Source: Agapetus fuscipes (Eukaryota > Arthropoda > Insecta > Trichoptera > Glossosomatidae). From it: a stretch of DNA of 64,000 nucleotides. This document shows positions 10,701 to 44,150 of this stretch, in pieces. The translations under genes and the position numbers were made by a program. The stretch's first letter is position 1, and every line of letters begins with the position of its first letter. The stretch covers positions 7,068,001 through 7,132,000 of the forward strand of contig OX637338.1 of the NCBI GenBank assembly GCA_951799405.1, in the 5' to 3' direction. The notes under the pieces were generated by a model. That model was not told the origin of the DNA and did not search any database. It worked only from the letters and a program-made list of their open reading frames with translations.

Positions 10701-13700
10701 GTAATTAATTTGGGTAGTTATTTTTGTTCATTTTGTGTGAAGAACACTGCAATTCATCAATTTATTTCCTTTTTGTCCAAACAGGAACATATTGCACTAT
10801 AAATTAGTATTCCGTTATTTCTTACTTAATGAATTATTCCTAAATAATTATCCAAGCACATCCTTTAACTCAGGTTCAAAGCTATCATCATGCGTGCCAT
10901 GCGGTAATCAAACTGATGCTGTTTTCTTACAAACAAAAGAAAAACGATTGCTATTAACTGCTATTCCATAGCACCAACAACTACTAATTTTTATAATAGT
11001 TGTCTTTTTGTAAATATTAAAATTGCAGTCTATTTATTTCAGCAGTTAACATGTACCATCACTTCTGCGACTTCTTCAACCTTTACGCTTCTCTACATGT
11101 CAACTCAAGTCATCCATCTTGCTTTTCAAAAGACAACAATATTTTAATTTGGGAAACATTCACCTATGATTCTGCATTCAAAGACACGTTCAGTGTTTTT
11201 ACAAATAATCAAATTTTAGATCTGAAAGCATTCCGAGGAGAAGTTGTCTGCTTTAAAAATGTTGTCTTTCCATTGTTGCCCAGAATGATATTTGGATTAT
11301 ATTACAATACACCTGTGGTGAGTCACTTTATAATGAATTGTTATTTGCATGCACTCAACATTATCTGGTGGAAAAAACATGACTCAGATAACATACGGTA
11401 GAACTTTGATTATGCGAACTATTGTGGACCAAGCCAACCTCAGATAATCAAAAGCTTGGATAACATAGCCTTGTTTTATACTTGGAAATAAGATCACATT
11501 TTCATTATGTGTGCTTTATTTTCATGATAAATTAATATCTAAGTACTTAATGTAACTACACTGACAGTATGATTAAAGATTACAATAAGGCAAAGTAATT
11601 GTCAATGTTTTGTCAGCCATATCTCCATTTCTTCATGAAGAAAATGCCTGCTTTCATTGCTTCATTTTGGAGCTCCAAGTAAGGTTACACAGTTTCAAAT
11701 GCAGATAAAGAGAAACAATTTTAAATATGATTTCAAATCGTCATTAGGATAGACAAATTGTAAGCTCGGTTGATTACAACCTCGGTTAAAGCAGGTACTT
11801 GAGGTTCTAATGTAATACAATTGTTTGGAAATTGAAGAATAATGTTGTTGTTGTGAGTAAATTGACTGTTAACTCATTATAAATGCAACACCTAAATAAA
11901 CATTGAAGATAATTTGAAATTGATTGGAATACCAAATGGACCCATGTTTTACTAACATGCAATTTGATGTGTTATCAATGTTATACTCATATTACAATAC
12001 TGTTTTGTTATTATTGCAGATATATGGATGTGAAAAAAGTGGTTTGTTTCATGCCTTCTCCACGCACATTTTAAATGGATTGAATGTTGTAAAACATAAC
12101 AGAGAGAATGACAAAATTAGAGTCACTCTCTTGGCTAGGGAGACCAAATACAGGAGAATACTCAACGAGGATGAGCTGCTGGACGCTCTCAATGCTACAG
12201 ATGGAATCATTGTCAACAGAGTGGTGTACAATAGGAACATTCCCTTTGTAAATCAGTTGAGCATCAGCCACAATACAGATGTTCTGATTGGGATGCACGG
12301 CGCAGGGCTTACTCACCTGATGTTCTTACCTGATTGGGCGGCTATTTTTGAACTGTAAGATGTCTTCTTTTCATATATTACTCTACTTTTTGTATGGCCG
12401 GCAAGCGCAACAAATTTCTTGGCCATTGGGCAGCGTCAGAGGCGAAGATCCAAGCCCTCCATCCACTTCACTGCTTCTGGCGTGGCTTCATGGAAGTCTT
12501 TCAGGCCAGGAGAGTGTCTTCTGATGGGGAACTCCTCCGCTATGTGCCGGACAGTCTGGTTCTCCGCCCCACAGTTACATCCTGGAGATGGAGCTAATCC
12601 CCATCTATGGGAGGAATGAATTGCAATGTCCTTGCTTGGTGCGGACCCTATCTAAGATCATCCATAGTCCTCTCAGAATATTGAACCCTGGGACCTCCTA
12701 GTGTGGTAGAGTGGTTGTAAAATATATTATTTTTAATGTAAATTTTCAAGTCTAAAAATGTTCAGTTAGAATATTCACATCCCTACCATTCAAATGCAGT
12801 GATATGTCAGCTAAATTATCACCTGAATGCAACAAGTAGTGCCCTGTACGTTCAGGTACAAAAATGTATGTACCTGAAACCCACAAAACGTCCGTGACAA
12901 TTCGAATTGTTCCTATAATTCTAAATACACGTCTCGTTTAGTAATTTGATGTTAGCTAAAGTTAACAGATGTTTTTGTCTTTTTTTAAATAATTACTCCA
13001 GGTAGCAAGGTTAAAGTAAGGCAGATGTATTTTTAAGTAATTATTATTTAGCAAGTATTTATATACCCATGTTCAAAAGAAATTTTACTTTTTAAAATGG
13101 TAGCTTTCATCTGATACATGGTATTCAAAAAGTTGAATGAAAATTTGAAAAACTTTCCATGGAAAATTTCGAACGCTTTGCCTATTACGTAGTAAAGTAA
13201 AAAGTTACACAGAGGGTGCCAAATGTTTACCTCCTACATTAATTAATGAAATGGCAAGACTTATATGGTGCTATTCTTAGACATTTTAGTCGTCCGTTGA
13301 GCCCACGCTTTGACAAACTAATGATGCATTTGTATGAAGACCTGTCAATCCAAGATGGCCACAAGTGAACAGCTAATTATTAGTCTTCATACAAATATTA
13401 CCAAATTTCGGTAGGTAAGAATGACCGTGGTGATGAGACTTTCAGCCCAGGCATCATTAGTTTGTCAAAGCGTGGGCTCAACCGACGACTAAAATGTCTA
13501 AGAATAGCCCCTTAGTGTCTGTGACTGAAGGTATTTTCTGTGCATGGTATAATCTTGTTTGTTTCATTTGTTAATTTTATGATTTCAGATATAACTGTGA
13601 AGACGGTGGCTGTTATTCCGACTTAGCAAGACTGAGAGGTGTAAAATACATCACATGGCAGAAGAGTGATAAATTGTTTCAAGAAGATGAGGTAAGCATA

Positions 13701-15382: not shown

Positions 15383-16415
15383 TCTAATCTAAATCTAAAT
15401 CTAAGCTGCAAAGATATGTATCATTTGAGATTCATATTAAATGCATTCCCACTAGCAGACATGCATAATTTCGCGCTTACACATGCCGCATGTGGACCTA
15501 CAATATAAAAAACCCAATCTCAAATGGACATAAGCCCTGCAACTCTTGCCGACCTTCCCTGAAGCAGGGGTGACATTGGCAAAGTGAACTATTTTTTACA
15601 GTATGGGTGGTCAGCCGCATACCAACCATCAGTCAAGGAATAAAAGCAATTAATACATTAAAATATATAAAACAAATAAACTCTTAAACAATTAAACAGT
15701 AAAAAATTAAAAAACTACAAAACGTATTTAAAAAATAAATAATTTAAAAGCCTCAGCTTTAACCGCCAGCATTACAGATCAACCGCCATTTCTTTCGATC
15801 CTTGCATACTTCTTTCATTTCATTCAGAGCCATAACCTTTTTCATACAAGCTCTCCTTTTATTATGACTCTGGATATCCCATTCATTCGCTATTTCGAAA
15901 ATTTGGTCCATCCATACCTTTCTCGGTCTTCCTCTTCCACGACATCCATCAATTCTCGCAGCATATACTTTCTTCGTCAGTCTTTCCTCATTCATTCTCT
16001 CCAAATGTCCAAACCATCTAAGTATACTTCTTTTAATCTTTACTTTCACACTTTCTCTTACACCACATTCCTCTCTAACAGAATCATTCCTTACCCTATC
16101 ACTCCGTCTTTTCCCAATCATACTTCTTAAGTAGTCCATTGCTACTGTATGGACTTGACTAATCTCACTTTCACTCACCGTCCAGGTTTCACTTCCATAC
16201 ATCAGAGTGGGCACTAGTATACCACCGTGCACCGCCAGTCGAACATTTTTTGAAAGATTCTGGTTCTTGGCGATGCTAGCGGTAGCACCCAGTACGCACC
16301 TGCCTTTCATTATTCTTCTTTCAAATTCACCGGTCATTCTTCCATCTTTTTCAAACTTACTTCCCAGGTATACAAACTCATTTACGACATCAACATACAT
16401 GCTTGTGACACAAAA
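15383..16415 (-). pseudogene. LINE-1 copy: RT C-terminus, 3' UTR and family A tail
   Basis: An open frame (stop at 15759) gives about 220 residues of the C-terminal third of an endonuclease-type reverse transcriptase: EFVYLGSKFEKDGR, VPTLMYGSETWTVSESE, RWFGHLERMNEERLTKKVY, GRGRPRKVWMDQI, VCKDRKKWRLICNAGG. It then has about 115 bp of AT-rich 3' UTR and a complete family A segment (15640-15383) ending in (TCTAAA)n. It is 5'-truncated near 16415, so the polymerase core is missing. Close to LINE-2 but distinct in sequence and 3' end. Confidence 0.8.
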
Positions 16416-17400
16416 AAATTGTAAAACCACATTAATAGGAATGCCAATAAATGTCTTTATTTTTTTATCTTAGAGCTGTTTTGATTTTAAAAATATGATA
16501 AAAAATAAAAAAGTTATGCCATTTTTTCTGCAATCTCAATCTTTAAAATGCTCTCCTGAACAATTAAGTTTTTTCGCTTATGCCCTATTGCCTTTTAACC
16601 GTCAATATAATTAAATTTTACTCGCCTTATAACTACATGCAATTTATTTGGAATTTTCAAATTGGTTCATTAATAAGTGTTTTTAGCTAATTTCAATAAT
16701 ATGTAACATAGCTAGTTAAGTTAATAAAGCAAAATAAACTTAGGATATTTTAATCAATTCGTAAAAACAATGGAAATGTACTTAATGTTATTTTTTTACT
16801 ATATTTTTTCAGCTATGTCTTCGGCCTCTATAATTTAATGATACTTTTTTAACGTTAGTATTAATTTGCTCATGTTATTGTGTTATTAACATTTAATTGA
16901 TTTATTTTTAATATTAATTTTCTAATGATTTTTATGACTATAAAATCTTTGGGTAACTTTAATTGTTCATTTAAACAAAATTATTTTTCACACGATTACT
17001 ACAAGGGGCATCGGAATTCCTTGAGATGGCGAATGAATTTCAGTCAAAGATTGAAGGCACACTTGAATTTATGTCCCTGTTATCAAGTCTATATTTAATG
17101 TATCTTATTATTTGACTCTTGAAAACTTTTGGCAATTTTTGTGATAATTTCACCATCAGCTTTCCAATTTTAATTAACATTGACATTTTATGGGAGTTGT
17201 AAAAATCACTGTGGAAATGCGGCCTTTTATTATTCCCTACTATCACCCAGGCCTTAAAACTGCTACCTGCAAAATTGTTGTTAATAGGCGAGTTACCCTC
17301 AAAAATTTATTCACAAAGAAGTTCTTTGATTTAGAAATGACTATTTTTACAGGCGACTCACCTACCTGTGTCATCTCTTTTCCTACTTGTGGTTAGGCCT
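16416..17400. other. No gene seen
   Basis: AT-rich DNA. A short reverse copy of family G sequence (TTAAATTTTACTCGCC, 16611-16626) is the only recognised repeat. Confidence 0.3.
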
Positions 17401-19267: not shown

Positions 19268-21099
19268 CCCTTTCAGAACTGAAAAATAAAAAGTATTTTT
19301 TTTCTTTCTTTTTCTTGATAATACTCATCTAATAGACCATAGGATAATGAAAAAAATATAAAAAAAAAATTACAACATTGGGTCTTTTGGAAAAGGTACC
19401 CACACAATTGTGTGGGTCAGGATTGAAGTACTACCAAAATATACTATTGGATGATTTTTTTAGAACTCAATATTCATGGAAATAACACAATTTTTATATT
19501 TTAAACTAACAGGTATCTTAAATTAAATCAATAATTCTGATTTCGGAACTACTGGAGATTGTGTCCATAGTTTTGTGGCTTTGAATGTCTATCATCTGGC
19601 TCATAATTTTCAGCATCATCGTCATCATCTTCATGAGCTCATGATGAGGTGCATCCCATCAAACCGCTTCATTTCTGTGCTTTTTATTTGTAATTCAATG
19701 TGCTTCTGCAACAGAGCACACATATTTGTAAATAACATGTTTGATGTTATTAAAGAATTCATCATTGTAATAGATCTTAAAATATTTTAGAGGTGTTTTT
19801 TTAGGTCTCTCTTTCAAGTTCGAGTGATCAGGATCATTTGGAAGAGAAACATCTTCAAAATCCTTTTTTTTCCATTTCATGTCTCTGATATTAGGTAAAC
19901 GAGGGTCTGGGACTTTTTTTATCTGTCACAACCTCGATTGGTTGAGGCTCTGGAATTTTTAACGTCAGTCACAACCTCGATTGGTTGAGGGTCTGGGACT
20001 TTTTCGTCAGTCACAACCTCGATTGGTTGAGGGTCTGGGACTTTTTCGTCAGTCACAACCTCGATCGGATGAGGGTCTGGGACTTTTTTGTCAGTCACAT
20101 CCTCGATTGGTTGAGGGTCTGGGACTTTTTTGTCAGTCACAACCTCGATTGGTTGAGGGCCTGGGACTTTTTTGTCAGTCACAACCTCGATTGGTTGAGG
20201 GCCTGGGACTTTTTTGTCAGTCACAACCTCGATTGGTTGAGGGCCTGGGACTTTTTTGTCAGTCACATCCTCGATTGGTTGAGGGTCTGGGACTTTTTTG
20301 TCAGTCACAACCTCGATTGGATGAGGGTCTGGGACTTTTTTGTCAGCCACAACCTCGATTGGTTGAAGGTCTGGGACTTTTTCATCTGTCACAACCTGGA
20401 TTGGCTCATCATCTCTCTCTTCCTCTTCAAATGTCTGAGGTGCATAAGTTTCCTAATTATCATCGTCGTCTGAATATTCCCCATCAGAATTTTCTTGTAA
20501 CAGCACAATTTCCTCAAATTCTTTAATCAGATCCAAGTAACGAGCTGAAGGCCAAGAAAAATCAGAATATATCTGAACATCAGCTTGTAATATATTTTTT
20601 TCATCATTATTTACATTAAAATCTAAAATAACACGTTTTTTTTTAAAACAAATACAGTGAAATTTCAAATAAAGAATTCACATTATGTACTAATTGAGTC
20701 TCAATTAAATCCCAACCTACACAATTGTGTGGGTGCACTTTTTTTGACAAATTACGAAAAAAATACAAAAGTTACAGCTATATTTACTTTATTAAACTAA
20801 TGTTTAGTTATTTTTCATTTAATATTTAAACATTGAGCATAATTAAAGCATATTTAGAAAAAAATATTCACTTTCCCATTTTCTAAATCGAGGCGCACAA
20901 TAATCACAAACTTTGACCTTAGTGTACATAAAATTATAGAATGCTTTTAGCCTCAGAACGCTTTCTATGCATAGTATGTAACTTACACTAACGATGTATG
21001 CAGTTTTCTACATAGTCTCAAGTTATTTTATGTGAAATATTTGACGAAATATAACCACATGTTTTACCCACACAATCGTGTTGGCCAGTTCTGAAAGGG
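19268..21099 (-). mobile_element. piggyBac-like element, internally deleted
   Basis: Ends are perfect 14-bp inverted repeats, CCCTTTCAGAACTG at 19268-19281 and its complement at 21086-21099. The flanks TTAT and TTGA look like decayed TTAA targets. Subterminal palindromes CCCACACAATTGTGTGGG (19399-19416) recur near 20718-20733 and 21067-21083. Minus-strand coding remnants: an acidic N-terminal domain (20668-20453, ending SDGEYSDDDDN and a TAG), a repeat-expanded linker, then WKKKDFEDVSLP and TPLKYFKIYYNDEFFNNI (19880-19695). These match the start of the piggyBac DDE domain. The catalytic remainder is absent and there are frameshifts, so it is dead or non-autonomous. Confidence 0.75.
19919..20400 (-). 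repeat. 42-bp coding minisatellite in the piggyBac linker
   Basis: About 11 tandem 42-bp units encode VPDPQPIEVVTDKK-type 14-residue repeats on the minus strand. The unit length is a multiple of three, so the frame survives expansion, apart from a frameshift near 19955. The long plus-strand frames over it are by-products of the period. Confidence 0.9.
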
Positions 21100-28150: not shown

Positions 28151-28154
28151 GTAA

Positions 28155-28626
28155 TGTTATGTAAATATAAATATTGAAATAAGTATGGGTAGTTATAAGT
28201 ATAAGAGTCCTCATAGGTACAGGTAGGTAAGATCGATAATTATGTATAAGTGTAGAATTCTCTAGGCTAAGTAGGTATTTGTTATAATTATAGGAATACT
28301 GTATTGCATTGGTAGGTAGGATTTTGGTTGTGTCTAGGTAGTACGTGAAACATCGAGAAGTAATAATTACTCTGGAACCTTCTAGCAACTATAGGTCTAG
28401 ATTATACTGCTCTAAAGAGTATAAAGGGTGCAAATGGCCTGCAGAGCGGCCAGTATCATAGAGACTTACAAACACATCGAAGTCATCTGATCAGTGAACC
28501 AAAACCAAGTGGAATAATCGAGAAAGTAGTGTGAAAATAAATTTTGTAACTGTGTAAAATAAATAACTATTGAAGAAGACCTGTGTATTTTTAATTTGAA
28601 GACAATTGAACCCTAATTTCGTAACA
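28155..28626 (+). repeat. 5' LTR
   Basis: Begins TGTTATGTAAATA and ends TTTCGTAACA (TG...CA). Contains a TATAAA at 28420-28425 likely to set the transcription start, and AATAAA at 28536-28541 and 28558-28563. Confidence 0.95.
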
Positions 28627-28628
28627 AT

Positions 28629-28646
28629 TGGCGTCAGGTGCGGAAT
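28629..28646 (+). other. Primer-binding site
   Basis: TGGCGTCAGGTGCGGAAT starts two bases after the LTR. TGG is what a tRNA CCA end would pair with. I cannot name the tRNA. Confidence 0.65.
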
Positions 28647-29307
28647 TGTCAAGAAAAATTAAGATCTTCTGTCTAAAAATAAATAAAATAAATTAAATAG
28701 TGTTAAAATGAACTTTATTCAAATTGAACTTTGTGTGAACTGACTTTTGTGAAAACAAGTGTTTAAATAAATTTTTGTTAAAAGAAAAGACGCAAAAGCA
28801 AGTTGTTTATAAATTCTGGAACATCATATGGAACATAATTCTGGACATAATTCTGGACATAACATAATGACTATTTTACCGCATTGAGAAAGTCATCAAA
28901 TTGGACCATAGTTTTTTTTATTATTGTGTGTGATTAAAAAAAATAAAATAAATAAATAAAAATCTTGAAAAATATTACAAAAGAACGTTCCAGATTCATC
29001 GAGAAAAAGTTTTTGAATAACTATCCTTTGTTTACAAGTGTGTGAATGTACATTAAATACCTACCTGTGTGTTTGAAAGACTTGAGACGAAATAAATAAT
29101 TATGTACTATCAGACATTATTATGTTAAAAATATTGGTGAATTAAAAATAAATATTAAAAGACAGTACCTACCTACCAATCAGTGTAATCAGACAAATTA
29201 TTATTTTTGCTAAAGTACGTATTCAAAACAGCTATATATATAAAACTCAAAACTTGTATTAAATAAATTTGAAAATATTTTTGTTTTGACGTAAATTTTG
29301 AAAAAAA

Positions 29308-30729
29308 ATGGCAACTAAAGTGAACGTCAAGGACCTCAAAGTCACTGAGCTTAAAAATGAGCTTCTGGAGAGGGACCTGGAGACCTCAGGAGGAAAGGCA
29401 GCCTTACAAGCACGCCTCATAGGGGCCTTGGAACAGTCAGGCGAAGACCCGGCATATTTTGTCATGGCGTCTGGAGGGGACCGCGCCTTGGACGAGCTAA
29501 ATATCAGCATCAACAGTAACCTGACAGGACTGAAGACTGAGATGGCTGACAACGCCAAGACCCTGGAGGAGAAGATGGCTGACAACGCCAAGACCCTGGA
29601 GGAGAAGATGGCTGACAACGCCAAGACCCTGGAGGAGAAGATGGCTGACAACGCCAAGACCGTGAAGGAGGACCTGACCGGGCTGGAGGAGAAGATGGCT
29701 GACAACGCCAAGAGCCTGAAGGAGGACCTGACCGGGATGGAGGAGAAGATGACCAGCAACCTGACCGGGCTGGAGGAGAAGATGACTGGGCTGGAGGAGA
29801 AGATGACCAGCAACCTAGCCGGGCTGGAGAAGAAAGTGGCAGAAAGCTCGCGAGCAATGTCGGAGATTGAGGCCCGTGTGGCAAGCCTGGAGGATCGTCT
29901 GCGTGCCGAGCTGGCTGACAAGTGCCAGATGGAGTCCACCAGAATATCCCCCAAAGACGGCCTTCACGACGAGACCGACCAGGGATGCTCAACTCCAACC
30001 AGGGTCACTAGAGGGGATGACGACCCTTCGCTGTCGAAGCACAACCTTCCGACCTTCGACGGGAAGACGTCGTGGGAGGAGTATTTGACCCTCTTTGAGA
30101 CGGCTGCCATGATGGGAGCCTGGAGCCAGCAGAAGAAGGCTTCGGTTCTCAGCCTGTCGCTCCGAGGAGACGCTCTCAGGGTTCTGCAGGCCATACCCCT
30201 GGACAACCGTGGTGACTTTGGGCAGCTGAAGCAGCGCTTGGATATGCGCTATGGCCACAAGTGCCTGGAGCAGCTGTACAAGTCGCAGCTGAACACAAGG
30301 GTGCAGAAGCCCAACGAGAGCCTCCAGGAGTTTGAAATGGACATCGCCCGCCTGGTACGAGACGCTTACCCGACAGCCTCCGACGACATCTGTGAGAGCT
30401 TGGCAGTGGACAAGTTCCTAAATGGATTGCGGGAATGGGAGACGCAACAAGCCGTAAAACTGGCCCATCCCAAGGCTTTGAACGAGGCGCTCAGCCAAGC
30501 TCTCGAGTTTGAGGCTGTCAAACAGTCCATCAGGGGCCACGCCAGGGTTCGTGCAGTCGAGGCAGAGGAGGTCAAGCTACCTACAACCGAGGAGCTAATT
30601 GAAAAAGTGCTGGAACGTCTGAGACCTCGAAGACGAGACCCACGCTGCTGGAACTGCGGACAGCTGGGCCACCTTAGCACCAAGTGTCCCAAGCCTCAGA
30701 AACCCAGAAAACAGGCTGCGGAAAACTAG
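29308..30729 (+). CDS. gag: Gag of the gypsy element (SAP domain, coiled coil, zinc knuckle)
   Basis: 473 residues. Residues about 6-46 (LKVTELKNELLERDLETSGG ... ALQARLIGAL) fit the SAP helix-turn-helix, a DNA-binding module of nuclear proteins. Residues about 79-190 are a long coiled coil made of 11-residue MADNAKTLEEK units. The first three are near-perfect 33-bp repeats (29542-29640) and later ones degenerate. Residues about 245-420 are a retrotransposon capsid domain (LPTFDGKTSWEEYLTLFE, LQEFEMDIARLVRDAYP). A CCHC knuckle C447-X2-C450-X4-H455-X4-C460 packages RNA. The ATG is the first in the frame and fits an upstream leader of 680 bp. Gag ends TAG inside the pol frame. Confidence 0.93.
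   Translation: MATKVNVKDLKVTELKNELLERDLETSGGKAALQARLIGALEQSGEDPAYFVMASGGDRALDELNISINSNLTGLKTEMADNAKTLEEKMADNAKTLEEKMADNAKTLEEKMADNAKTVKEDLTGLEEKMADNAKSLKEDLTGMEEKMTSNLTGLEEKMTGLEEKMTSNLAGLEKKVAESSRAMSEIEARVASLEDRLRAELADKCQMESTRISPKDGLHDETDQGCSTPTRVTRGDDDPSLSKHNLPTFDGKTSWEEYLTLFETAAMMGAWSQQKKASVLSLSLRGDALRVLQAIPLDNRGDFGQLKQRLDMRYGHKCLEQLYKSQLNTRVQKPNESLQEFEMDIARLVRDAYPTASDDICESLAVDKFLNGLREWETQQAVKLAHPKALNEALSQALEFEAVKQSIRGHARVRAVEAEEVKLPTTEELIEKVLERLRPRRRDPRCWNCGQLGHLSTKCPKPQKPRKQAAEN
29542..29850 (+). repeat. 33-bp tandem repeats in gag
   Basis: Units begin ATGGCTGACAACGCCAAGAC. Three are adjacent and nearly identical, followed by degenerate copies interleaved with GAGGAGAAGATG motifs. All keep frame and encode the coiled coil. 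Confidence 0.85.
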
Positions 30730-33700
30730 AAAGGGTTAATGGGAAGGGGCAACCGTTGACCCACGCTGGAGAGGCCCTGAAATCTGCTGCTACTGTCGCA
30801 ACCGTGAGAGGAAAAGCCAGCAGCATTTTTATCAATGGCATAATAGATGGAGTAACTCGTGAACTACTGGTGGACACGGGAGCAACCAGGACAATTCTGA
30901 GACGCGACATAGTGGCACGAGGTAAGCAGATTGCACCAACAAAGTGGTCTCTGCACACCGCCACGGGAGAGTCAGCACAGGTGTATGGGGAGACGATTGC
31001 CACCTTCCAAATTGGCAGCACCACTTTTGATCATCGGACGTTGGTGGCCAACATTGAAGAAGACGTTATATTGGGAATGGACATACTGGACAGATTTGGG
31101 TGCAGTTTAAATTTAAAGAAAGGGTCCATTAAAATTGGAAATGAAGAAGTCATCCTGCAAAGACGGAAAGAACTGGCTGCACGTGTTATCCTAGCCAAGA
31201 ATACCGAAGTGAAGGGGCGATCTGAGATGATAGTGAGTGCCCGCCTGGATTCCAGTAGTACAAATGACCAAATCTGTATGATAGAACCGGAGAACATGGA
31301 CAATGTTAACAAAGGAGTCATGGTGGCAAGAACAGTGATTCGCGCAAAGGAGACCATTCCTGTCAAGATCATGAATGTGAACAGCTACCCAGTTAAAATG
31401 AATGAAGGTTTTGTTTTGGGCAGATGTGAGAGGATAACTTCCATTGTGCAACAGATGACAAACATGTCATGCGAAGGAAACAAATTGTCAACACAATTGG
31501 AAGCCCTGGTCCACGACGCTTCCCAAGGTCTAACCGAGGAAAACAAACGGAGAGTGAGGAGTTTGATCTGCCGCTACCAGAACATTTTCGAGGACTCTAA
31601 TGGCCGTCTGGGAAGAACCAAGGTAGTGCGACATAGCATAGACACCGGAGAAGCGAGACCAATAAAACAGGCTCCAAGAAGACTACCCTTTGCAAAGCGG
31701 GAAGAAGCTGACAAGATCATCAAAGACATGAGCAAGGATGGCATCATAGAACCATCAAGTAGCCCTTGGACATCCCCGGTGGTACTGGTGAAAAAGAAGG
31801 ATGGTACCACGAGATTTTGTGTGGACTACAGACTGCTCAACGATGTTACGAAAAAGGATAGTTACCCTCTGCCAAGGATTGACGACACCTTGGACACATT
31901 GGCAGGATGCACCATTTTTTCCACATTGGACCTGAAAAGTGGCTACTGGCAAGTTGAATTGGATGCCAAAGATAAGGAGAAAACTGCATTCTCGACTGGA
32001 TCTGGACTTTGGCAGTTCACCGTGATGCCATTTGGCTTATGCAATGCCCCCGCCACGTTTGAAAGGCTGATGGAGAATGTGCTGCGAGGACTGTCATGGG
32101 AAACCTGCCTGGTATACTTGGATGACATAATCATCCTGGGAAAGGACTTCAACCATCAGTTGAGAAATCTGGAGCAAGTTTTCGGGCGACTACAAGACGC
32201 TGGACTGAAGCTCAACCCGAAAAAGTGTAACCTGTTCAAGAAACAAGTAAATTACCTGGGACACATAGTTTCTCAACGTGGAGTTGAAGTTGACCCTGCC
32301 AAAATCAAGGCAGTAAGAGACTGGCCCGTGCTGAAGGACAAACATGAAACTAGGAGTTTCCTGGGGCTGTGCACTTATTACAGGAGGTTTGTGCCAAGAT
32401 TTGCGGACATTGCAAAACCGCTCACCAAGCTTACGGAAGAAAACACTCGCTTCCATTGGAGTGATTCCTGCGCACAAGCATTTGAAGAGCTTAAGGGAAG
32501 ATTAACAAGTGCCCCCATCTTGAGCTACCCACGAAAAGATGGAAAGTTCATCCTGGATACCGACGCTAGTAATGTGGGGATAGGAGGCGTCCTTTCCCAA
32601 ATACAGGATGGGCATGAGACTGTTCTGGGTTACTTCAGTAAAGTGCTTTCCAAGCCAGAACGAAATTATTGCGTGACCAGACGAGAGCTTCTTGCCGTGA
32701 TAAAATCAGTGGAACACTTCCGCAAATACTTGTACGGGAGAAAATTCACACTACGGACTGATCATGCTGCACTGGTTTGGCTTCTGAAATTCAAAAACCC
32801 AGAAGGGCAAGTGGCTAGATGGATTGAAAGGCTCCAGGAGTATGATTATGACTCCGAACATAGACCTGGCACGCTTCATCGAAATGCGGATGCATTATCC
32901 AGACGACCATGCGCCAGTGACTGCAAACATTGCAGCAAGATGGAGGACAAGGTAGCAATTGTCCAAAGGACGACCACCGAAGATGAGGACTGGCAAGATG
33001 AAAAATTGGCGCAAGACCAACTGAATGATCCGGACTTGAAGTATGTGATGGAATGGGCGCGAGAAGGAGAAAGGCCAACCTGGGAAAAACTCGCCCCCTT
33101 ATCACCAACTGTCAAGGCTTATTGGGCTCAATGGGGATCCATAGTGATAGAAGGAGGGTTTCTGAAACGAAAGATCGAGAAGGAAGACGGCACACTTAGA
33201 AGAAAGCAAACCCTCGTTCCGAGGAGCCGAGTACCGGAAATCCTTGGACTGCTGCATGGAGGAACTTCTGGAGGACATCTAGGCGTTAAGAAGACGCTGG
33301 AGAAAGTGAAAGAGCGATTTTACTGGATCAACTGCAGCGAAGACGTCAAAGATTGGTGTCGAAAATGTGTAACCTGTGCAACGGCCAATGGACCGCAAAG
33401 GAAAAGGCGAGCACCAATGCGTCAGTACAATGTTGGCAGCCCCTTTGAAAGAATTGCCATCGACATAGCTGGCCCATTTCCTACAACTGAGAAGGGTAAC
33501 AAGTACATCATGGTGGTGATGGATTACTTCAGCAAGTGGGTGGAAGCTTACTCAATCCCTAACCAAGAGGCCGTAACCGTGACTGAAGTTCTAGTTACCG
33601 AATTTATCAGCAGGTTTGGCGTACCCCTGGAATTACATTCTGATCAGGGAAGGAACTTTGAAGCTGCTATCTTCCAGCAAATGTGTGAGCGGCTAGGGAT

Positions 33701-34946
33701 CTACAAGACCAGGACCACTGCGCTACATCCACAGTCTGATGGAATGGTGGAAAGGATGAACCGTACCGTGGGGAGGTACTTAGCCAAAGTAGTGTCCAGC
33801 CATCAGCGGGACTGGGACCGACATCTGCCTTTGTTCTTATTGGCTTACCGGTCGGCTGTTCAGGAAACGACGAAGAAGACTCCCAGCAGCATACTGTTTG
33901 GGCGAGAAATGCGACTTCCTTGTGATCTCAAATTTGGCTGCAAACCAGGTGAAGACCTAGCCGGAGAAGACTATGTGACAGACCTTCGCAGGAGGCTGGA
34001 TGACATCCATGATCAGGTCCGCATGAACATCGGGGAAGCCAGCGATCAAATGAAGGAGCGCTATGACACCAGAGCTGACAGCATGGGGTACAAAGCTGGT
34101 GACTGGGTGTGGCTTTTTGACCCCAAGAGGCGCCAAGGATACTGTCCGAAACTTCAGCGTTCCTGGGACGGGCCGTACGAGATCTTGGAGCGCATCAACG
34201 ATGTGGTCTACCGCATAAAAAAGAGACCAAACGGAAAACCAAGGGTCGTGCACTACAATCGCCTCTCACCATACCTAGGCGATAATGATGACCAACCAGC
34301 CCAAAAAGTACGACAGTGCGTCGCATCCGAAAGATCACCAGCCTTTGAGACGTTTTGGGAGAACGCGAAGGCAGGGCAGAAGTTTCGCCATGGAGTGACC
34401 ACAGAAGTCCACAAGGACTTATTTGAGGTCACTAGGGACCACACACTGGCATGCAGTGTACCGGAAGATCTAGATATGTCTAGAGGAATTGCACGGGTCT
34501 TCCGATACAAATTCGGAGAACCGCAACCCTCGAGCAGCCCGCAAGGAAGAGCTCTGAGACTACCGAAGGGGCGTCAACAAGCATACTGCCTGGTTGTCCC
34601 GGATTCCAGCAACCTGGAAGAGGACTACAAGGCATTGTGGGACGGCCTTGTTGAGCTGCGTGACTACATGTTGGAGGATCAGCAGGCGCGTCTGGCAATA
34701 CCGAAGATGGGTGGCGGCCGCGCTAATCGAGACTGGCGGATAATCCGGAGTATGATTGAAGCAGTGTTCTCGGGAGTCGGCATCAGCGTCATGGTGTGCT
34801 GCGAGCAAGCGCAGCCGAGAGCCAGTGGGGAGAAATCCGTGGACTGCCACTTCTTCCTGACCACAGGGTGTCGACGTGGATCAGCATGCCCCTACCTACA
34901 CAGAGTCAAGACTGTTCCGGGACGAAACAGTCTAGGTGGGGGGTAG
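30684..34946 (+). CDS. pol: Pol polyprotein with macro-like domain and CCCH finger
   Basis: 1420-codon frame, -1 relative to gag; real Pol probably begins after frameshifting near 30726. In order: aspartic protease (D64-T-G-A), reverse transcriptase (YLDD at 478-481), RNase H (DTDAS from 625), integrase with HHCC finger (H858, H865) and DDE core D927, D987, E1023 (35 residues between the last two), then a GPF/Y-type module ending near 1199. Residues 1240-1372 look like a macro domain: VHKDLFEV, then DLDMSRGIARVFRYKFG, a variable middle, and IPKMGGGRANRDW (1339-1351) before a final helix and strand VGISVMVC. The order and motifs resemble the TARG1/OARD1 ADP-ribosyl hydrolases. The two catalytic positions of TARG1 (Lys84, Asp125) do not appear conserved. 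A CCCH finger follows: C1388-X7-C1396-X5-C1402-X3-H1406. The stop abuts the PPT. Confidence 0.93.
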   Translation: MSQASETQKTGCGKLERVNGKGQPLTHAGEALKSAATVATVRGKASSIFINGIIDGVTRELLVDTGATRTILRRDIVARGKQIAPTKWSLHTATGESAQVYGETIATFQIGSTTFDHRTLVANIEEDVILGMDILDRFGCSLNLKKGSIKIGNEEVILQRRKELAARVILAKNTEVKGRSEMIVSARLDSSSTNDQICMIEPENMDNVNKGVMVARTVIRAKETIPVKIMNVNSYPVKMNEGFVLGRCERITSIVQQMTNMSCEGNKLSTQLEALVHDASQGLTEENKRRVRSLICRYQNIFEDSNGRLGRTKVVRHSIDTGEARPIKQAPRRLPFAKREEADKIIKDMSKDGIIEPSSSPWTSPVVLVKKKDGTTRFCVDYRLLNDVTKKDSYPLPRIDDTLDTLAGCTIFSTLDLKSGYWQVELDAKDKEKTAFSTGSGLWQFTVMPFGLCNAPATFERLMENVLRGLSWETCLVYLDDIIILGKDFNHQLRNLEQVFGRLQDAGLKLNPKKCNLFKKQVNYLGHIVSQRGVEVDPAKIKAVRDWPVLKDKHETRSFLGLCTYYRRFVPRFADIAKPLTKLTEENTRFHWSDSCAQAFEELKGRLTSAPILSYPRKDGKFILDTDASNVGIGGVLSQIQDGHETVLGYFSKVLSKPERNYCVTRRELLAVIKSVEHFRKYLYGRKFTLRTDHAALVWLLKFKNPEGQVARWIERLQEYDYDSEHRPGTLHRNADALSRRPCASDCKHCSKMEDKVAIVQRTTTEDEDWQDEKLAQDQLNDPDLKYVMEWAREGERPTWEKLAPLSPTVKAYWAQWGSIVIEGGFLKRKIEKEDGTLRRKQTLVPRSRVPEILGLLHGGTSGGHLGVKKTLEKVKERFYWINCSEDVKDWCRKCVTCATANGPQRKRRAPMRQYNVGSPFERIAIDIAGPFPTTEKGNKYIMVVMDYFSKWVEAYSIPNQEAVTVTEVLVTEFISRFGVPLELHSDQGRNFEAAIFQQMCERLGIYKTRTTALHPQSDGMVERMNRTVGRYLAKVVSSHQRDWDRHLPLFLLAYRSAVQETTKKTPSSILFGREMRLPCDLKFGCKPGEDLAGEDYVTDLRRRLDDIHDQVRMNIGEASDQMKERYDTRADSMGYKAGDWVWLFDPKRRQGYCPKLQRSWDGPYEILERINDVVYRIKKRPNGKPRVVHYNRLSPYLGDNDDQPAQKVRQCVASERSPAFETFWENAKAGQKFRHGVTTEVHKDLFEVTRDHTLACSVPEDLDMSRGIARVFRYKFGEPQPSSSPQGRALRLPKGRQQAYCLVVPDSSNLEEDYKALWDGLVELRDYMLEDQQARLAIPKMGGGRANRDWRIIRSMIEAVFSGVGISVMVCCEQAQPRASGEKSVDCHFFLTTGCRRGSACPYLHRVKTVPGRNSLGGG
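30720..30726 (+). promoter_or_regulatory. Candidate -1 frameshift site between gag and pol
   Basis: GGAAAAC sits in gag codons (G GAA AAC) directly before the gag stop TAG (30727-30729). Slipping back one base enters pol. It has the G GAX XXZ form of some known retroviral slippery sites. A downstream stem was not evident by eye. Confidence 0.45.
34933..34946 (+). other. Polypurine tract
   Basis: TAGGTGGGGGGTAG lies flush against the 3' LTR and also encodes the last Pol residues and stop. It primes plus-strand DNA synthesis. Confidence 0.75.
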
Positions 34947-35418
34947 TGTTATGTAAATATAAATATTGAAATAAGTATGGGTAGTTATAAGTATAAGAGT
35001 CCTCATAGGTACAGGTAGGTAAGATCGATAATTATGTATAAGTGTAGAATTCTCTAGGCTAAGTAGGTATTTGTTATAATTATAGGAATACTGTATTGCA
35101 TTGGTAGGTAGGATTTTGGTTGTGTCTAGGTAGTACGTGAAACATCGAGAAGTAATAATTACTCTGGAACCTTCTAGCAACTATAGGTCTAGATTATACT
35201 GCTCTAAAGAGTATAAAGGGTGCAAATGGCCTGCAGAGCGGCCAGTATCATAGAGACTTACAAACACATCGAAGTCATCTGATCAGTGAACCAAAACCAA
35301 GTGGAATAATCGAGAAAGTAGTGTGAAAATAAATTTTGTAACTGTGTAAAATAAATAACTATTGAAGAAGACCTGTGTATTTTTAATTTGAAGACAATTG
35401 AACCCTAATTTCGTAACA
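34947..35418 (+). repeat. 3' LTR
   Basis: Same 472 bp as the 5' LTR with no difference noticed on reading, followed by the GTAA duplication. Confidence 0.95.
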
Positions 35419-35517
35419 GTAACATTTCGTGTGTAATCCCCTAAGTAATGTGCGCACACATAAAATTATACTTGCTGTGACAATGCTGAAGATATGGAAG
35501 GACAGATCCTTAAGTAA

Positions 35518-38737: not shown

Positions 38738-41700
38738 GACCTGTACTGTACTGTACTGTATCCTGCCGCCGTTCCACTAGGGGTGGCCGGTACCTCCGCA
38801 GATGCGCCTCCACTTATTTCTGTCCTTACAAACCACTTTCATTTCCTCAATATTCATCACCTTTTTCATACATACTCTTCTCTTATTTTCACTCTGCAGG
38901 TTCCATTCTTTCGCAATCTCACCTATTTGGTCTAACCATTCTTTCCTCGGCCTTCCCCTTCCGCGCTTTCCTCTGACATTTCCTTTGTACACTTTCTTCG
39001 TTAGTCGTTCATCATCCATTCTTTCGAGATGTCCGAACCATCTCATCTTACTTTTTTGTACTTTCATTCTCATATTCTCTTTTATACCACACTCGTTCAT
39101 CACCCAATCATTACGTACTCTATCATTCAGTGTTTTTCCAGCCATTGCTCTCAGGTAAGCCATTTCAACCGTACATACTTTACTCAGCTCACATTCATTA
39201 ACTGTCCACGCCTCACTTCCATACATCAAAGTCGGAACCAATATGCCATTGTGGACCGCCAATCTCATATTCTTCGTAAGTTTCCTATTTCTTGCAATTC
39301 TTCCAATCGTTCCCATTACACTTCTTCCTCTACTAGCACGCTTTTCCAATTCTTTCGTCAATTTCCCATTCGACTCAAACTTGCTTCCCAGATAATCAAA
39401 TTCTTTCACGACCTCCACTCTTGTTTCATTCAGTCTTATCTCAATTTCCTCGCATTCCTCAGTCCTGTCAAACACTAATACTTTCGTCTTACTGGCATTC
39501 ACTTTTAAACCGTTCTTACTAAAAGCATCATTCATTTTGGTGAGTATCATCTGGAGCTCCTCCGCTGTATCAGCCAACACTACGGCATCGTCAGCATAGA
39601 GAAGAACTCCAACATTCGTCTCACCCACTTTCACACCATAATGAGAAATTTCTGCTTCTTTCATACAATTGTCCATGATTATGTTATTATGATTATGTCC
39701 GGTCGATAGCTCAGTTGGTAGAGTGCTTGCATTCTACCCCGTGAGCTCGGGTTCGAATCCCACCGAGGAGAGTGTCAGAAATGATTTCCAATTTCGGTGT
39801 GTATTTCAAACCCCATAATATAAATACCGGCGAGGTTTACTCAGCCTTTACAAGAAATGAGTACCAGCCCCCTCGGGAGCTGGGAAATTCCCACTTCAAC
39901 TGAAGTGGTTGGCGTAAGGCCGGCCCCCTTACCTGTAAAAATAAATAGGTTCAACTCGCCACATGCGACCCCTTCGGGGATAACGCGGCAAGAAGTTACA
40001 CTATATGTGTAGCTTAGTTGCGTTTTTTTTTTTGCGTTAAATAACCACGGACTCATTAGGTACACACCCCTGTCGTACTCCCTTGTAAACATCAAACCAT
40101 TCGCTACATTTACCATCCACTCTTACACACGCCAAACTATTTTCATAGATGGCGCGTATTCCATTCAGAAGCTTGCCGTTCACACCGTACTTTTGGAGTA
40201 CTTTCCACATCATACCTCTGTCCACCGAGTCAAAAGCCCTCTCGAGATCCACAAAAGCCGTGTAGACCTTCCGACCCACAGCCAGATGTTTTTCAACAAT
40301 TTGTCTGAGAGTGAAGATCTGGTCTACACACCCTCTTCCTGGCATAAAGCCAGTCTGGATATCAGAAACCCCATGACCGGTAGACAGTCTCACTTTTTTT
40401 ATGAGAACCTTACACAATACTTTACCAGCTATACTAAGAAGACTGATGGGCCTGAAATTTTGGCAGTCCTTTTTGTCACCTTTTCCTTTGTAGATAGGAA
40501 CAATGACCGCCTTTTTCCAGTCCATCGGCACTTTACTCTCTTTCACACACATCTTGCACAGTTCAAACATCCATTCAACCATGCACTCCCCAGCACATTT
40601 GATCATCTCAGCATTCACACCATCATTTCCAGCAGCTTTTCCATTCTTCAGATCTTTTATACTTATTATCACATCCTCTTTCACAATTTCTTCACCGCTG
40701 TCATTATATTCAACATCATAATAGTCTCTTTCGCCCTGGCCATATAAATTTTTAAAATATTCATTCCATCTCTTCCTTACATCACTTTCGTCCCACAGCA
40801 AGATTCCCTCAGCGTTTTTAATGCCTGGGGTGGTTGATCCGCGACTTTCGTTTTTATCACGTACCCAGCTCCAGAATGATTTTTTATTGGTGAGGAAATT
40901 CTGCTGCGCTCTCTCATTTTCCTTACTTTCTATTTTCATCTTACTCTCAAAGACGACGGTTTTGGCTCTTCGTTTTGCTTGCTTATATATCTCTTCTAGA
41001 GCTTGATTTTTCCTATCATTCAGCCATCTATTAAAAGCATTCTTCTTCTGTTCAATAGCTTCTCTTACTTCGTCATTCCACCATGCATCACCTCTTCTTT
41101 TACAGACCTTCGCTTCACCACAAACAGATTTCGCACATTCAATCATATTTTCTTTCATTTTTGACCACATTTTTTCAACACATCCTTCTTCTTTTGTTTT
41201 TTTTAACTCATCGTGGTTAAGTCTTTCATTCATCTCACATTTGTACTTTTCTTTTATACTTACATCATTCATTTTTTCAACTTTTATTCGCTTCATACTC
41301 AGCAATTCCTTTTGTGCTCTTCTTTTTACATCTCCTATCATTATTCTCGAGCACAGCAAATAGTGGTCTGTGTTCAGCACAGCTCCACGGTATACTCGAG
41401 AGTCTCTTACATCCCCTCTCATTCTTTCATCCACACAGATGTAGTCAATAATTGTACGGTTGCCCGCTCTGTTCTGCCACGTATACAAATGTATACTTTT
41501 GTGGTTGAACCAGGTATTCGACGTAAAGAGTCTATGCTCCATACATAGGCTTATTAGCGCTCTACCGTTATCATTGGCTACACCTTTACCACTCGGTCCT
41601 ACCACATTTTCGCTATCATCTTGTCTCATACCTACCCATCCATTAAAATCTCCTAGTAGAATCGTTCTTTCATTCTCTTCTTTCTGTCTCATAACAATGT

Positions 41701-41918
41701 TAACTTTCTCCCAGAATTCTTCTTTCACTACCCTGCATTCCGAGTCCACTGGGGCGTAGCACGCAATCAGTAGAACTTTCATCCGTCCAAATCTCATTCT
41801 CACTAACAATATTCTCGGGGAGACTCTTTCATACTTAGTAATACAACCTTTCGCTTTTTCATCAATGATAACACCTACACCCTGTCTCTTGTATCCATCT
41901 TTCACCCCACACCATACA
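38738..41918 (-). pseudogene. LINE-2: APE endonuclease and reverse transcriptase, split by a SINE
   Basis: Non-LTR retrotransposon, 5'-truncated. Minus-strand frame 41905-40037 carries the endonuclease (LLGDFNGWVG, TIIDYICVD, NTDHYLL), a linker, and RT motifs (NFRPISLLSIAGKVLCK, GRGCVDQIFTLRQIVEKH, YTAFVDLERAFDSVDR, VRQGCV). After a 4-base frameshift MSPWLFN is still readable, then SINE C interrupts (39696-40037). RT resumes in frame 39688-38777 with IIMDNCMKEAE, YADD at 39598-39587, YLGSKFESNGK, MYGSEAWTVNECELS, RWFGHLERMDDERLTKKVY and GGTGHP stop. The 3' end is short and closes with an (ACTGT)n tail on the plus strand (38740-38760). Non-functional. The clade is not assigned. Confidence 0.9.
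39696..40037 (+). repeat. SINE C, full length, inside LINE-2
   Basis: tRNA-like head GGTCGATAGCTCAGTTGGTA with GGGTTCGAATCCC, complete body, and T-rich tail 'gcgttttttttttttgcg'. GTTA occurs on both sides (39682-39688 region and 40036-40039), and a short ttatgattatg repeat lies at the left border. Confidence 0.88.
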
Positions 41919-41924
41919 AAAAAA

Positions 41925-41985
41925 AACCCTTTCGAGGAAAACGCGGCAAGAAGTTATACTAAATGCGTAGCTAGTAGCGTTGTAG
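41925..41985 (+). repeat. SINE C 3' fragment
   Basis: 'ccctttcgaggaaaacgcgg' to 'gcgtagctagtagcgt' abuts the 5' truncation point of LINE-2. Confidence 0.6.
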
Positions 41986-42697
41986 TAGCGTATTTGGAGA
42001 AGAATTAGTATGAAATTTTACAATTACGTAACGTGTAATATTTGTTAGAAAATTTTAGGACTAAATATTTCTTAGCGCACGTACCTACTTGAACATATCG
42101 TGGGTCAAAGGCAACTCAAACTTTGATGGTTTTAAATCAATAATCCAAATATTTGCCTTGGGCAAGGAAAACACAATGCTATAATTATTTATCTCACATA
42201 TGCTGTCATTATTATATGAAAAAAAAACAGAAGTCTGGGTGTCTCACTATTTAAGTATTTTCAAAGTAATTAGGTAAATTCTAATAAAATTAAGTGACTT
42301 CCCGGAACTCAATCATGTCGATGTTATTGAAGAGTGCATCATTTATTAATTTCTATACTCGTGGAATACAGGTCATGATTTTTATGGGAACAATTTAAAT
42401 TGCTATTATACCAAAAGGATGCACACCGAGTTGTCTAGTTATAGAATTGAGCTCACGATATGCTGAAGTGACGGATCCAGAGAGACGCAGGACAGTTGGA
42501 AGACCCAGATCACGATGACTGGATGAAGTGGTTGAAACTGTCGTGCGGTAGGAGGATGGGACTGGAGAAGGAAGGATTCGGACAGGCAGCGATGGCTGTG
42601 GTTGATCAAAGAGACTAAGACCTATCCAGGATTGTGGATAGTGATGATGATCTGGGGAAAAAAGTGTATTTTTTTTCAACGGTATTTTTTTTGGGTG
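41986..42697. other. No gene recognised
   Basis: 42440-42650 is GC-richer with a 94-residue minus frame of low-complexity, TE-like character. I could not assign it. The remainder is AT-rich. Confidence 0.3.
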
Positions 42698-42708
42698 TAT
42701 ACGAATTT

Positions 42709-44150
42709 CTGCTGAGTTACTGAAATGTGGCGGAGAAGCCTTAGAAAATGCTCTGTGGGGTCTTTATCAGGATGTTTGGAAACATGAGGTACTGCCAGAT
42801 AGCTGGAAAGTTGCACTATTGTGTCCAATACATAAAAAAGGAGACAAAATGCTATGCTCTAATTATAGAGGTATCTCACTTCTCCCAGCGGCATACAAAA
42901 TATTGTCTAATATTCTGCTAAGAAGAATTATGCCATATGCTGAATGTGCTCTTGGAGAGTACCAAGCAGGTTTCAGAAGGAATCGGAGCACAACGGACCA
43001 GATCTTTTCTTTGAGGCAAATATTAGAGAAGAAGTGGGAATATGCTCAAGATACTCATTGCCTTTTTGTCGACTTCAAGACTGCTTATGACTCAGTGCAT
43101 CGTTTGGGGCTGTGGAGCGTTTTACGAGACTATGGAATTCCTGGAAAACTCATAAAACTGGTTCAGATATCCATAGAAAATTCAAGAGCTCAAATACTGC
43201 TGCAGGGACAGGTCTCGGATCCCTTTGAGATCAGTTCAGGCCTAAAGCAGGGTGACGCCCTTTCTCCATTGCTCTTCAACCTAGCCTTAGAAAAGGTTGT
43301 GAGAGAAACCAAACCTGTGTATGGTGGAATCACCATAGGAAGTACCATTAGGCTGCTGGGATATGCGGATGATGTGGTGCTTCTGGGAGAGAACGCTGCA
43401 CAGCTCCGGGCGCTCTTCTTACCAATGGAGAGAATGGCAAGGAGGATAGGATTGAGAATTAATGAGGGGAAAACTGAATACTTGCCTGTGGCGCGGCGGG
43501 ATATTCAAGAAGATTTGAATGTAGATAATTACAAGTTTAAGAACTGCAATTCATTCAAATACTTGGGTACCCTTATAAATGACAAAAATATCCTATCCTC
43601 AGAATTACATGCCCGAATTCACTCCGGCAATAATGCTTTTTTTGGCCTTAGAGGGCTATTGTGCTCAAAATGGCTATCCCGCTCCACAAAATTCAAGATT
43701 TACACTTCCATTGTTCGGCCAGTTGTGTTGTACGGATGCGAAGCCTGGAGTCTGACTCAAAAACAAGAAAAATCTCTCCAGGTCTTTGAGAACAAAATGC
43801 TTCGTCGCATTCTCGGACCTGTATTTGAAGATGACAGGTGGCGTATCCGGACCAACGCGGAGCTGATGTCCGTGTTTCAAGATGCTAACATAGTGTCGGT
43901 AATGAAATCAAGAAGACTCCAGTGGGCCGGACATGTAGCACGTGCAGAGGACTCCAGGATCATTAGAACAGTCTTGGATGGTGCCCCTTCAGGTGTTAGA
44001 CCACTCGGACGTCCCAGGATGCGGTGGGCAGACAACATTGAAGCCGATGCCGAAATTCTGGGAGTGAGGGGACCATGGAGGGAAGCTGCACAAGACAGAG
44101 AGTCCTGGAGGATTGTGGTGCGGGAGGCCCTGAGCCTTCAAGGCTTATGA
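42709..44150 (+). pseudogene. LINE-3 reverse transcriptase, 5'-truncated insertion
   Basis: Open frame from SAELLKCGGEALENALWGLY through CPIHKKGDKMLCSNYRGISL, AGFRRNRSTTDQIFSLRQIL, HCLFVDFKTAYDSVHR, GLKQGDALSPLLFNLALEKV, YADD, FKYLGTLINDKN, LYGCEAWSLTQKQE and WAGHVARAEDSRI to a stop after LSLQGL (end 44150). The endonuclease and N-terminal RT fingers are missing, yet the remaining frame has no stops, so the insertion is young. It has a (TAAG)n 3' tail (44163-44190). An 11-bp duplication TATACGAATTT flanks the insertion (42698-42708 and 44191-44201). Confidence 0.9.

What the first reader, a model, noticed from the sequence alone, without database searches (positions are those of the whole stretch)
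34407..34946. Ty3/gypsy Pol carries a C-terminal macro-like domain plus a CCCH zinc finger
Seen: past the integrase, Pol continues about 220 residues. Residues 1242-1372 show the full order of macro-domain motifs (VHKDLFEV; DLDMSRGIARVFRYKFG; LAIPKMGGGRANRDW; terminal VGISVMVC), then C-X7-C-X5-C-X3-H. Known: macro domains bind or hydrolyse ADP-ribose, several RNA viruses use them against host ADP-ribosylation, and the closest pattern is TARG1/OARD1. Inference: the element captured a host macro gene and may use it, with an RNA-binding CCCH finger, to counter PARP-type defence or to bind modified host factors. TARG1 catalytic Lys and Asp seem replaced, suggesting binding or another mechanism.
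Basis: partly seen in the sequence, partly recalled or inferred. Interest (0 to 1): 0.88.

Follow-up and report, generated by a model that had tools for sequence, protein, structure and literature searches.

The report
TARG1-like macro domain in gypsy Pol
An abundant, recently active jumping gene in an animal genome carries, at the end of its integrase protein, a decayed relative of a cellular enzyme that removes ADP-ribose tags, and a second group of jumping genes in the same genome carries a similar domain elsewhere with the key residues intact.

The parts
28155..28626 (+). 5' LTR, 472 bp, TG...CA
   Evidence: Direct repeat, blastn and ends; the single mismatch of the 476-bp blastn pair lies outside the TG..CA bounds, so the two LTRs are identical
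28151..28154 (.). target-site duplication GTAA (left copy)
   Evidence: flanks printed
28629..28646 (+). putative primer-binding site; the tRNA was not identified
   Evidence: begins TGG just after the LTR; reading recalled, not tested
29308..30729 (+). Gag: SAP domain, repeat-rich stretch, Retrotrans_gag, CCHC knuckle
30684..34946 (+). Pol open frame, -1 relative to Gag
30831..31094 (+). aspartyl protease
   Evidence: PF13975 E 1e-11
31788..32270 (+). reverse transcriptase
   Evidence: PF00078 E 3e-38
32541..32843 (+). RNase H
   Evidence: PF17917 E 2e-34
33216..33719 (+). integrase: H2C2 zinc domain and rve core
   Evidence: PF17921 E 6e-19, PF00665 E 4e-16
34098..34274 (+). integrase C-terminal SH3-like domain
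   Evidence: PF22938 and PF24626
34398..34805 (+). TARG1/OARD1-class macro domain fused to the integrase end, catalytic pair lost
34599..34601 (+). codon at the position of TARG1 Lys84 (here Pro)
34722..34724 (+). codon at the position of TARG1 Asp125 (here Ala)
34845..34901 (+). CCCH zinc finger, C-X7-C-X5-C-X3-H
   Evidence: PF00642 over its cut-off; ligands invariant in the 3 families aligned
34947..35418 (+). 3' LTR, identical to the 5' LTR
35419..35422 (.). target-site duplication GTAA (right copy)

Best explanation
Shown: an abundant Ty3/gypsy family, young in the window, has a TARG1-class macro domain and a CCCH finger fused behind the integrase SH3-like domain, in one Pol frame. Both TARG1 catalytic residues are gone, yet the domain is kept by purifying selection between families. 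Inferred: in this family it works as a binding module carried by integrase, in the place where chromoviruses (recalled) carry a chromodomain. It would hold the integration complex to, or shield it from, an ADP-ribose-marked host partner (chromatin, a PARP target or RNA), with the CCCH finger adding RNA contact. The sister lineage with the domain between RNase H and integrase keeps Lys and Asp and would remove ADP-ribose instead.
For: Fold and family. Fusion directly after the integrase C-terminal domain. Catalytic pair lost in F (Pro/Ala) and D (Arg/Ala), kept in A, B and C. Selection: macro dN/dS 0.17 (F-F2), 0.18 (F-D, dS near saturation), 0.09 (B-A); excess of synonymous change p 7e-10, 2e-6 and 4e-14. 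CCCH ligands invariant in three families. Abundance: 830 exact 39-mer hits. Context, passages only: in parp-1 null Drosophila most of the misregulated mobile elements rise, including gypsy-superfamily ones (PMC7712786).
Against: No binding or localisation data exist. The loops that form the pocket (recalled) are changed as well (HCIS to CSVP; GAGIA to SRGIA), so ADP-ribose may not bind at all. The 4-bp target duplications suggest a DNA-sequence preference (RTAY), which needs no chromatin reader. The model's alignment was made of TARG1-like proteins, so the fold result is not independent of the sequence match. PMC7712786 itself says the effect on elements may be indirect.
Confidence: 0.42

Rival explanations
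1. Counter-defence: the domain blocks or erases ADP-ribosylation that silences elements or is laid on Gag/Pol. In F it acts as a decoy or trap; in A, B and C as a working eraser.
For: The viral macro-domain precedent; retroelement silencing by ADP-ribosylation is on record (SIRT6/KAP1/L1 in PMC4695847; parp-1 null Drosophila in PMC7712786; passages only). A, B and C keep K84/D125.
Against: F, the most numerous family seen, and D lost both residues. PARP catalytic matches in this genome lie at only two loci (5 exon-like matches on C3 and C17; an intron-blind search, so a lower bound). Insect-restricted alphaviruses are reported to lose macro catalysis where antiviral PARPs are missing (passages of PMC7729036).
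Confidence: 0.25
2. RNA or particle role: macro plus CCCH finger form an RNA-binding tail of integrase that helps packaging or reverse transcription.
For: The CCCH finger resembles CPSF30 fingers (E 0.002); a macro domain-RNA complex is among the solved structures (3gpq, title); finger ligands are kept.
Against: Families A, B, C and J carry the macro-type domain at another place, where no such finger follows it in the stretches read; RNA binding was not tested.
Confidence: 0.18
3. Passenger: a captured domain that drifts without a function.
For: Catalytic residues lost in F and D; the domain evolves faster than the integrase core (F-F2 dN/dS 0.17 against 0.03; B-A 0.09 against 0.05); J is strongly decayed.
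Against: Synonymous excess in F-F2, F-D and B-A; the frame is open past the integrase in three families; CCCH ligands invariant.
Confidence: 0.1
4. Not a macro domain: an ordinary gypsy C-terminus that only looks similar.
For: Pfam Macro does not list it.
Confidence: 0.02

Closest known systems
TARG1/OARD1 (C6orf130), ALC1-like macro-domain class
   Different: Window family lacks Lys84 and Asp125, has altered loops, and is fused to integrase with a CCCH finger
Fish epsilon-like endogenous retroviruses with macro-domain ORFs (Basta et al. 2009, as told in a passage of PMC4977317)
   Same: Retroelements that carry a macro domain
   Different: There described as additional open reading frames of vertebrate retroviruses; here inside Pol of Ty3 elements, TARG1 type, two places. 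The original paper is not held, so the macro class there is unknown to me
Chromodomain at the integrase C-terminus of chromoviruses (recalled)
   Same: Extra module just behind the integrase C-terminal domain
   Different: No chromodomain match in the tail; macro fold instead
dUTPase between RNase H and integrase in some lentiviruses (recalled)
   Same: Families A, B, C and J carry the extra enzyme-type domain at the same Pol position
   Different: TARG1-like macro domain, not dUTPase
Viral macro domains (alphavirus nsP3) and phage TARG1-like proteins
   Same: Macro fold in mobile or viral genomes

Membership tests
TARG1/ALC1-like macro domain | macro fold closest to TARG1 | tested here: met
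TARG1/ALC1-like macro domain | sequence similarity to TARG1 | tested here: met
   E 6e-11 window, 2e-18 family D, 1e-20 family A
TARG1/ALC1-like macro domain | catalytic pair Lys84/Asp125 (pair described in passages of PMC7050489, where the second residue is written Glu125; the solved chain reads Asp) | tested here: not met
   Window Pro/Ala, family D Arg/Ala; families A, B, C and the host gene keep Lys/Asp. So the window has a degenerate TARG1-class domain, not a TARG1 enzyme
TARG1/ALC1-like macro domain | ADP-ribose binding or hydrolysis | not testable with these tools
   needs protein
Pfam Macro PF01661 | match to the model | tested here: not met
   not listed up to E 10; the same model finds three matches at two other loci of this genome (C7, C8)
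Ty3/gypsy LTR retrotransposon | LTRs, 4-bp duplication, Gag, then PR-RT-RH-IN order | tested here: met
CCCH zinc finger | C-X7-C-X5-C-X3-H and Pfam cut-off | tested here: met
   window 21.7 bits against 20.5; F2 21.6, family D 19.2 and below the cut-off; ligands invariant in 3 families
Chromovirus (chromodomain integrase) | chromodomain behind integrase | tested here: not met
   no such family among the 8 listed for the tail up to E 10
Captured host OARD1 | groups with eukaryotic OARD1 to the exclusion of viral kin | tested here: inconclusive
   not found in the free trees, not rejected by AU tests (p 0.61 and 0.67; 0.33 and 0.61)

The most novel reading that the evidence does not exclude
Ty3 elements of this genome (host probably an insect, not tested) took up a TARG1-class macro domain at two places in Pol, on two lineages. 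In one (A/B/C) it is a working ADP-ribosyl hydrolase carried into the reverse-transcription or integration complex; in the other (window family) it turned into a non-catalytic integrase module. ADP-ribosylation would then be a standing battleground between hosts and their retrotransposons.
Probability: 0.33. Interest if true: 0.88.

Novelty: new variant of a known kind. Interest (0 to 1): 0.72.

Why it matters
PARP-1 and SIRT6 are linked to retrotransposon silencing in flies and mammals (passages), but no retrotransposon-encoded answer to it turned up in the listings seen here. A conserved TARG1-class domain inside Pol of a family with more than 800 matches to its macro segment, and an apparently intact version in a second lineage, gives a direct biochemical test: does an LTR retrotransposon read or erase ADP-ribose? 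It also offers a new kind of integrase tail to compare with chromodomains.

Tried and rejected
Ordinary gypsy C-terminus: rejected by sequence and fold matches. Pfam Macro as detector: blind to this domain. Folding the tail alone without relatives: poor model, pLDDT 47, not used. Related elements in IMG/VR: none with the tail (0 of 1 stretch; 0 of 34) or with the internal domain (0 of 484). A third type of internal domain, sought with J: none (19 matches = 10 J, 3 A, 5 B, 1 C). CCCH finger near the host OARD1 exons: none by a motif scan of L030-L032. Canonical XXXYYYZ slippery site in the Gag-Pol overlap: none by a simple scan of 30651-30735. Origin by tree: unresolved. The branches to F/D (4.0) and A/B/C (3.2 changes per column) are long, the program warned of long-branch joins, of odd letter make-up in A, B and C, and that the bootstrap had not settled; the AU test of F/D+A/B/C+OARD1 did not finish.

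Literature: the searches that answered cover open-licence PubMed Central only. each held one paper, PMC4977317; one search listed 30 of 91 and 15 of 736 papers, so print is not excluded.

Full report
What is in the window. A complete Ty3/gypsy element lies at 28155-35418. The two LTRs are 472 bp and identical within their TG..CA bounds, flanked by a 4-bp duplication GTAA. Gag (29308-30729) has a SAP domain, a repeat-rich stretch, a gag domain and a CCHC knuckle; Pol (30684-34946) has protease, RT, RNase H, integrase zinc domain and core, and an SH3-like integrase end. The Pol stop codon (34944-34946) stands directly before the 3' LTR, behind a G-rich stretch, so there is no room for a further gene.

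Catalytic residues. Counting along the solved chain, Lys84 and Asp125 of TARG1 (described in passages of PMC7050489, where the second is written Glu125) align with Pro and Ala in the window family, Arg and Ala in family D, and Lys and Asp in families A, B, C, in the host gene and in 72 of 72 viral rows (the Asp was required by the pattern that fetched nearly all of them, the Lys was not). So the window domain is very unlikely to hydrolyse ADP-ribose by the TARG1 mechanism. Two loops that form the pocket (recalled) differ too, so even binding is open.

Other families in the same genome. The window is G000:C6:7068001-7132000 of a 618-Mb assembly. Searching with the window tail gave 1403 candidates, of which 150 were scored, and 150 of 150 were 100% identical in protein: one large family hides everything else. 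An exact 39-mer of the macro domain occurs 830 times (432 forward, 398 reverse; reversed control 0); how many of these lie in full-length copies was not counted. Searching with a phage TARG1-like protein (995 candidates, 150 scored), then with the family A domain (988 candidates, 150 scored), and reading representatives, showed: F2 (L156, one copy read) and D (L027, L028, L040 and others) with the same macro+CCCH tail; A (L025, 3 copies), B (L026, 5 places) and C (L033, 1 place), a different Ty3 lineage with a TARG1-like domain between RNase H and the integrase zinc domain; and J (L152, 10 places), the same place, strongly decayed. RT identity is 89% F-D, 82% A-B, 62-69% A/B-J, but 44-54% between the two groups. 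Family A's domain matches human TARG1 with E 1e-20, family D's with E 2e-18. The profile of the F/F2/D tail and that of A/B/C match each other at hhalign 97.6%, E 4e-12. J has no PDB match but aligns with the A/B/C domain (97.0%, E 9e-11) and weakly with viral TARG1 (80%, E 1e-5). In a search with family A's integrase (2237 candidates, 150 scored) the first 18 matches belonged to A, B, C or J; the other 132, at 38-39% identity, carry frames and places of the window family as far as looked at. Of the 18, 17 lie right behind a macro match, and one partial match does not. No close relative without the domain stands in that capped list.

Selection. By Nei-Gojobori counts the macro part has dN/dS 0.17 between F and F2, 0.18 between F and D (dS near saturation) and 0.09 between B and A. 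The integrase core has 0.03 (F-F2) and 0.05 (B-A); the integrase C-terminal domain 0.08 (F-F2) and 0.17 (B-A), so between B and A the macro part is not the fastest. The share of synonymous changes in the macro part exceeds the neutral share with p 7e-10, 2e-6 and 4e-14; it also does for the finger F-D (p 0.002), not for the short F-F2 finger (p 0.09), and modestly for B-J (p 0.003). These p values treat sites as independent. Between F and F2 dS falls from 1.7 in the integrase to 1.0 in the macro part and 0.15 in the finger, which hints at recombination between families near the 3' end.

Age. In ten window-family copies, taken from the 100%-identical list and so biased to young ones, 5' and 3' LTR pieces agree at 99.4-99.8% over 179-523 bp. 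Exact 4-bp duplications, all of the form RTAY, flank 7 of the 9 copies where both flanks could be read; 2 of the 9 do not match.

Origin. The host genome has OARD1-like exons at three places: the second macro exon at L030, L031 and L032, the first only seen at L031. In a tree of 80 rows (of 82; two host rows with one exon were dropped) the F/D group and the A/B/C group are each firmly one group on long branches, and neither is placed. Further runs left out 13 long-branched viral rows. Holding F/D, or A/B/C, with eukaryotic OARD1 is not rejected and even scores higher when the other group is left out (p 0.61 and 0.67). With both in, F/D+OARD1 scores lower (p 0.33), A/B/C+OARD1 higher (p 0.61), and F/D+A/B/C is not rejected either (p 0.43). 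By pairwise score OARD1 and viral proteins are about equally near (human rank 7 of 76 for F, 2 for D_L027, 9 for A, 1 for B, 6 for C). Two places in Pol argue for two acquisitions, or one and a transfer; this is inference.

How it may work. Retroelement silencing by ADP-ribosylation is on record: SIRT6 modifies KAP1 and silences L1 (passages of PMC4695847), and in parp-1 null flies most of the misregulated mobile elements rise, including gypsy-superfamily ones, though the authors allow an indirect effect (passages of PMC7712786). This genome shows PARP catalytic matches at two loci only, by an intron-blind search. Insect-restricted alphaviruses are reported to have lost macro catalysis (passages of PMC7729036), a parallel to the window family. 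I think the window domain is most likely a non-catalytic binding module carried by integrase, and the A/B/C domain a hydrolase inside Pol. The anatomy, conservation and residue states are shown; ligand, partner and effect are inferred.

Known or new. Fish epsilon-like retroviruses with macro-domain ORFs are a precedent (passage of PMC4977317; the original paper could not be read). A TARG1-class domain inside Ty3 Pol, with a CCCH finger and at two places, was not met in the listings of the paper searches that answered (the long listings were seen in part). I call it a new variant of a known kind.

Noticed in passing
L025:4203-4634, L026:4442-4870, L033:2383-2805: TARG1-like domain with Lys/Asp kept between RNase H and integrase of a second Ty3 lineage in the same genome.
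   Followed up: yes
L152:4884-5348 (also L153, L154, L159): Family J: the same linker, no PDB match by sequence, but aligned with the A/B/C domain.
   Followed up: partly
L160-L179: Window-family copies share a 4-bp target duplication of the form RTAY in 7 of 9 readable copies; the window copy has GTAA.
   Followed up: partly
window 29308-30729: Gag begins with a SAP domain over Pfam's cut-off (E 2e-7) and has 33-bp repeats.
   Followed up: no
L030, L031, L032: Host OARD1-like exons at three places; at L031 a long charged N-terminal part precedes the first macro exon.
   Followed up: partly
L156: F2 differs from F much less in the finger (dS 0.15) than in the integrase (dS 1.7): a hint of recombination near the 3' end.
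   Followed up: no
BFVD A0A8E0KJF2: Best viral structural match is the putative VP8 protein of Kadipiro virus (E 1e-12).
   Followed up: no
L064:6794-7294: A viral contig of 79 kb encodes a TARG1-like protein that groups with human and host OARD1 (98/82).
   Followed up: no
window 38777-44150 and 15759-16430: Non-LTR reverse transcriptase ORFs: RVT_1 in three of these four ORFs; 15759-16430 gave no Pfam match, its likeness to them was seen by eye only.
   Followed up: no
window 11924-12358: Exon-like ORF with a glycosyltransferase 61 match, EOGT-like by recall.
   Followed up: no
window 19919-20526: Repetitive stretch open in several frames on both strands.
   Followed up: no
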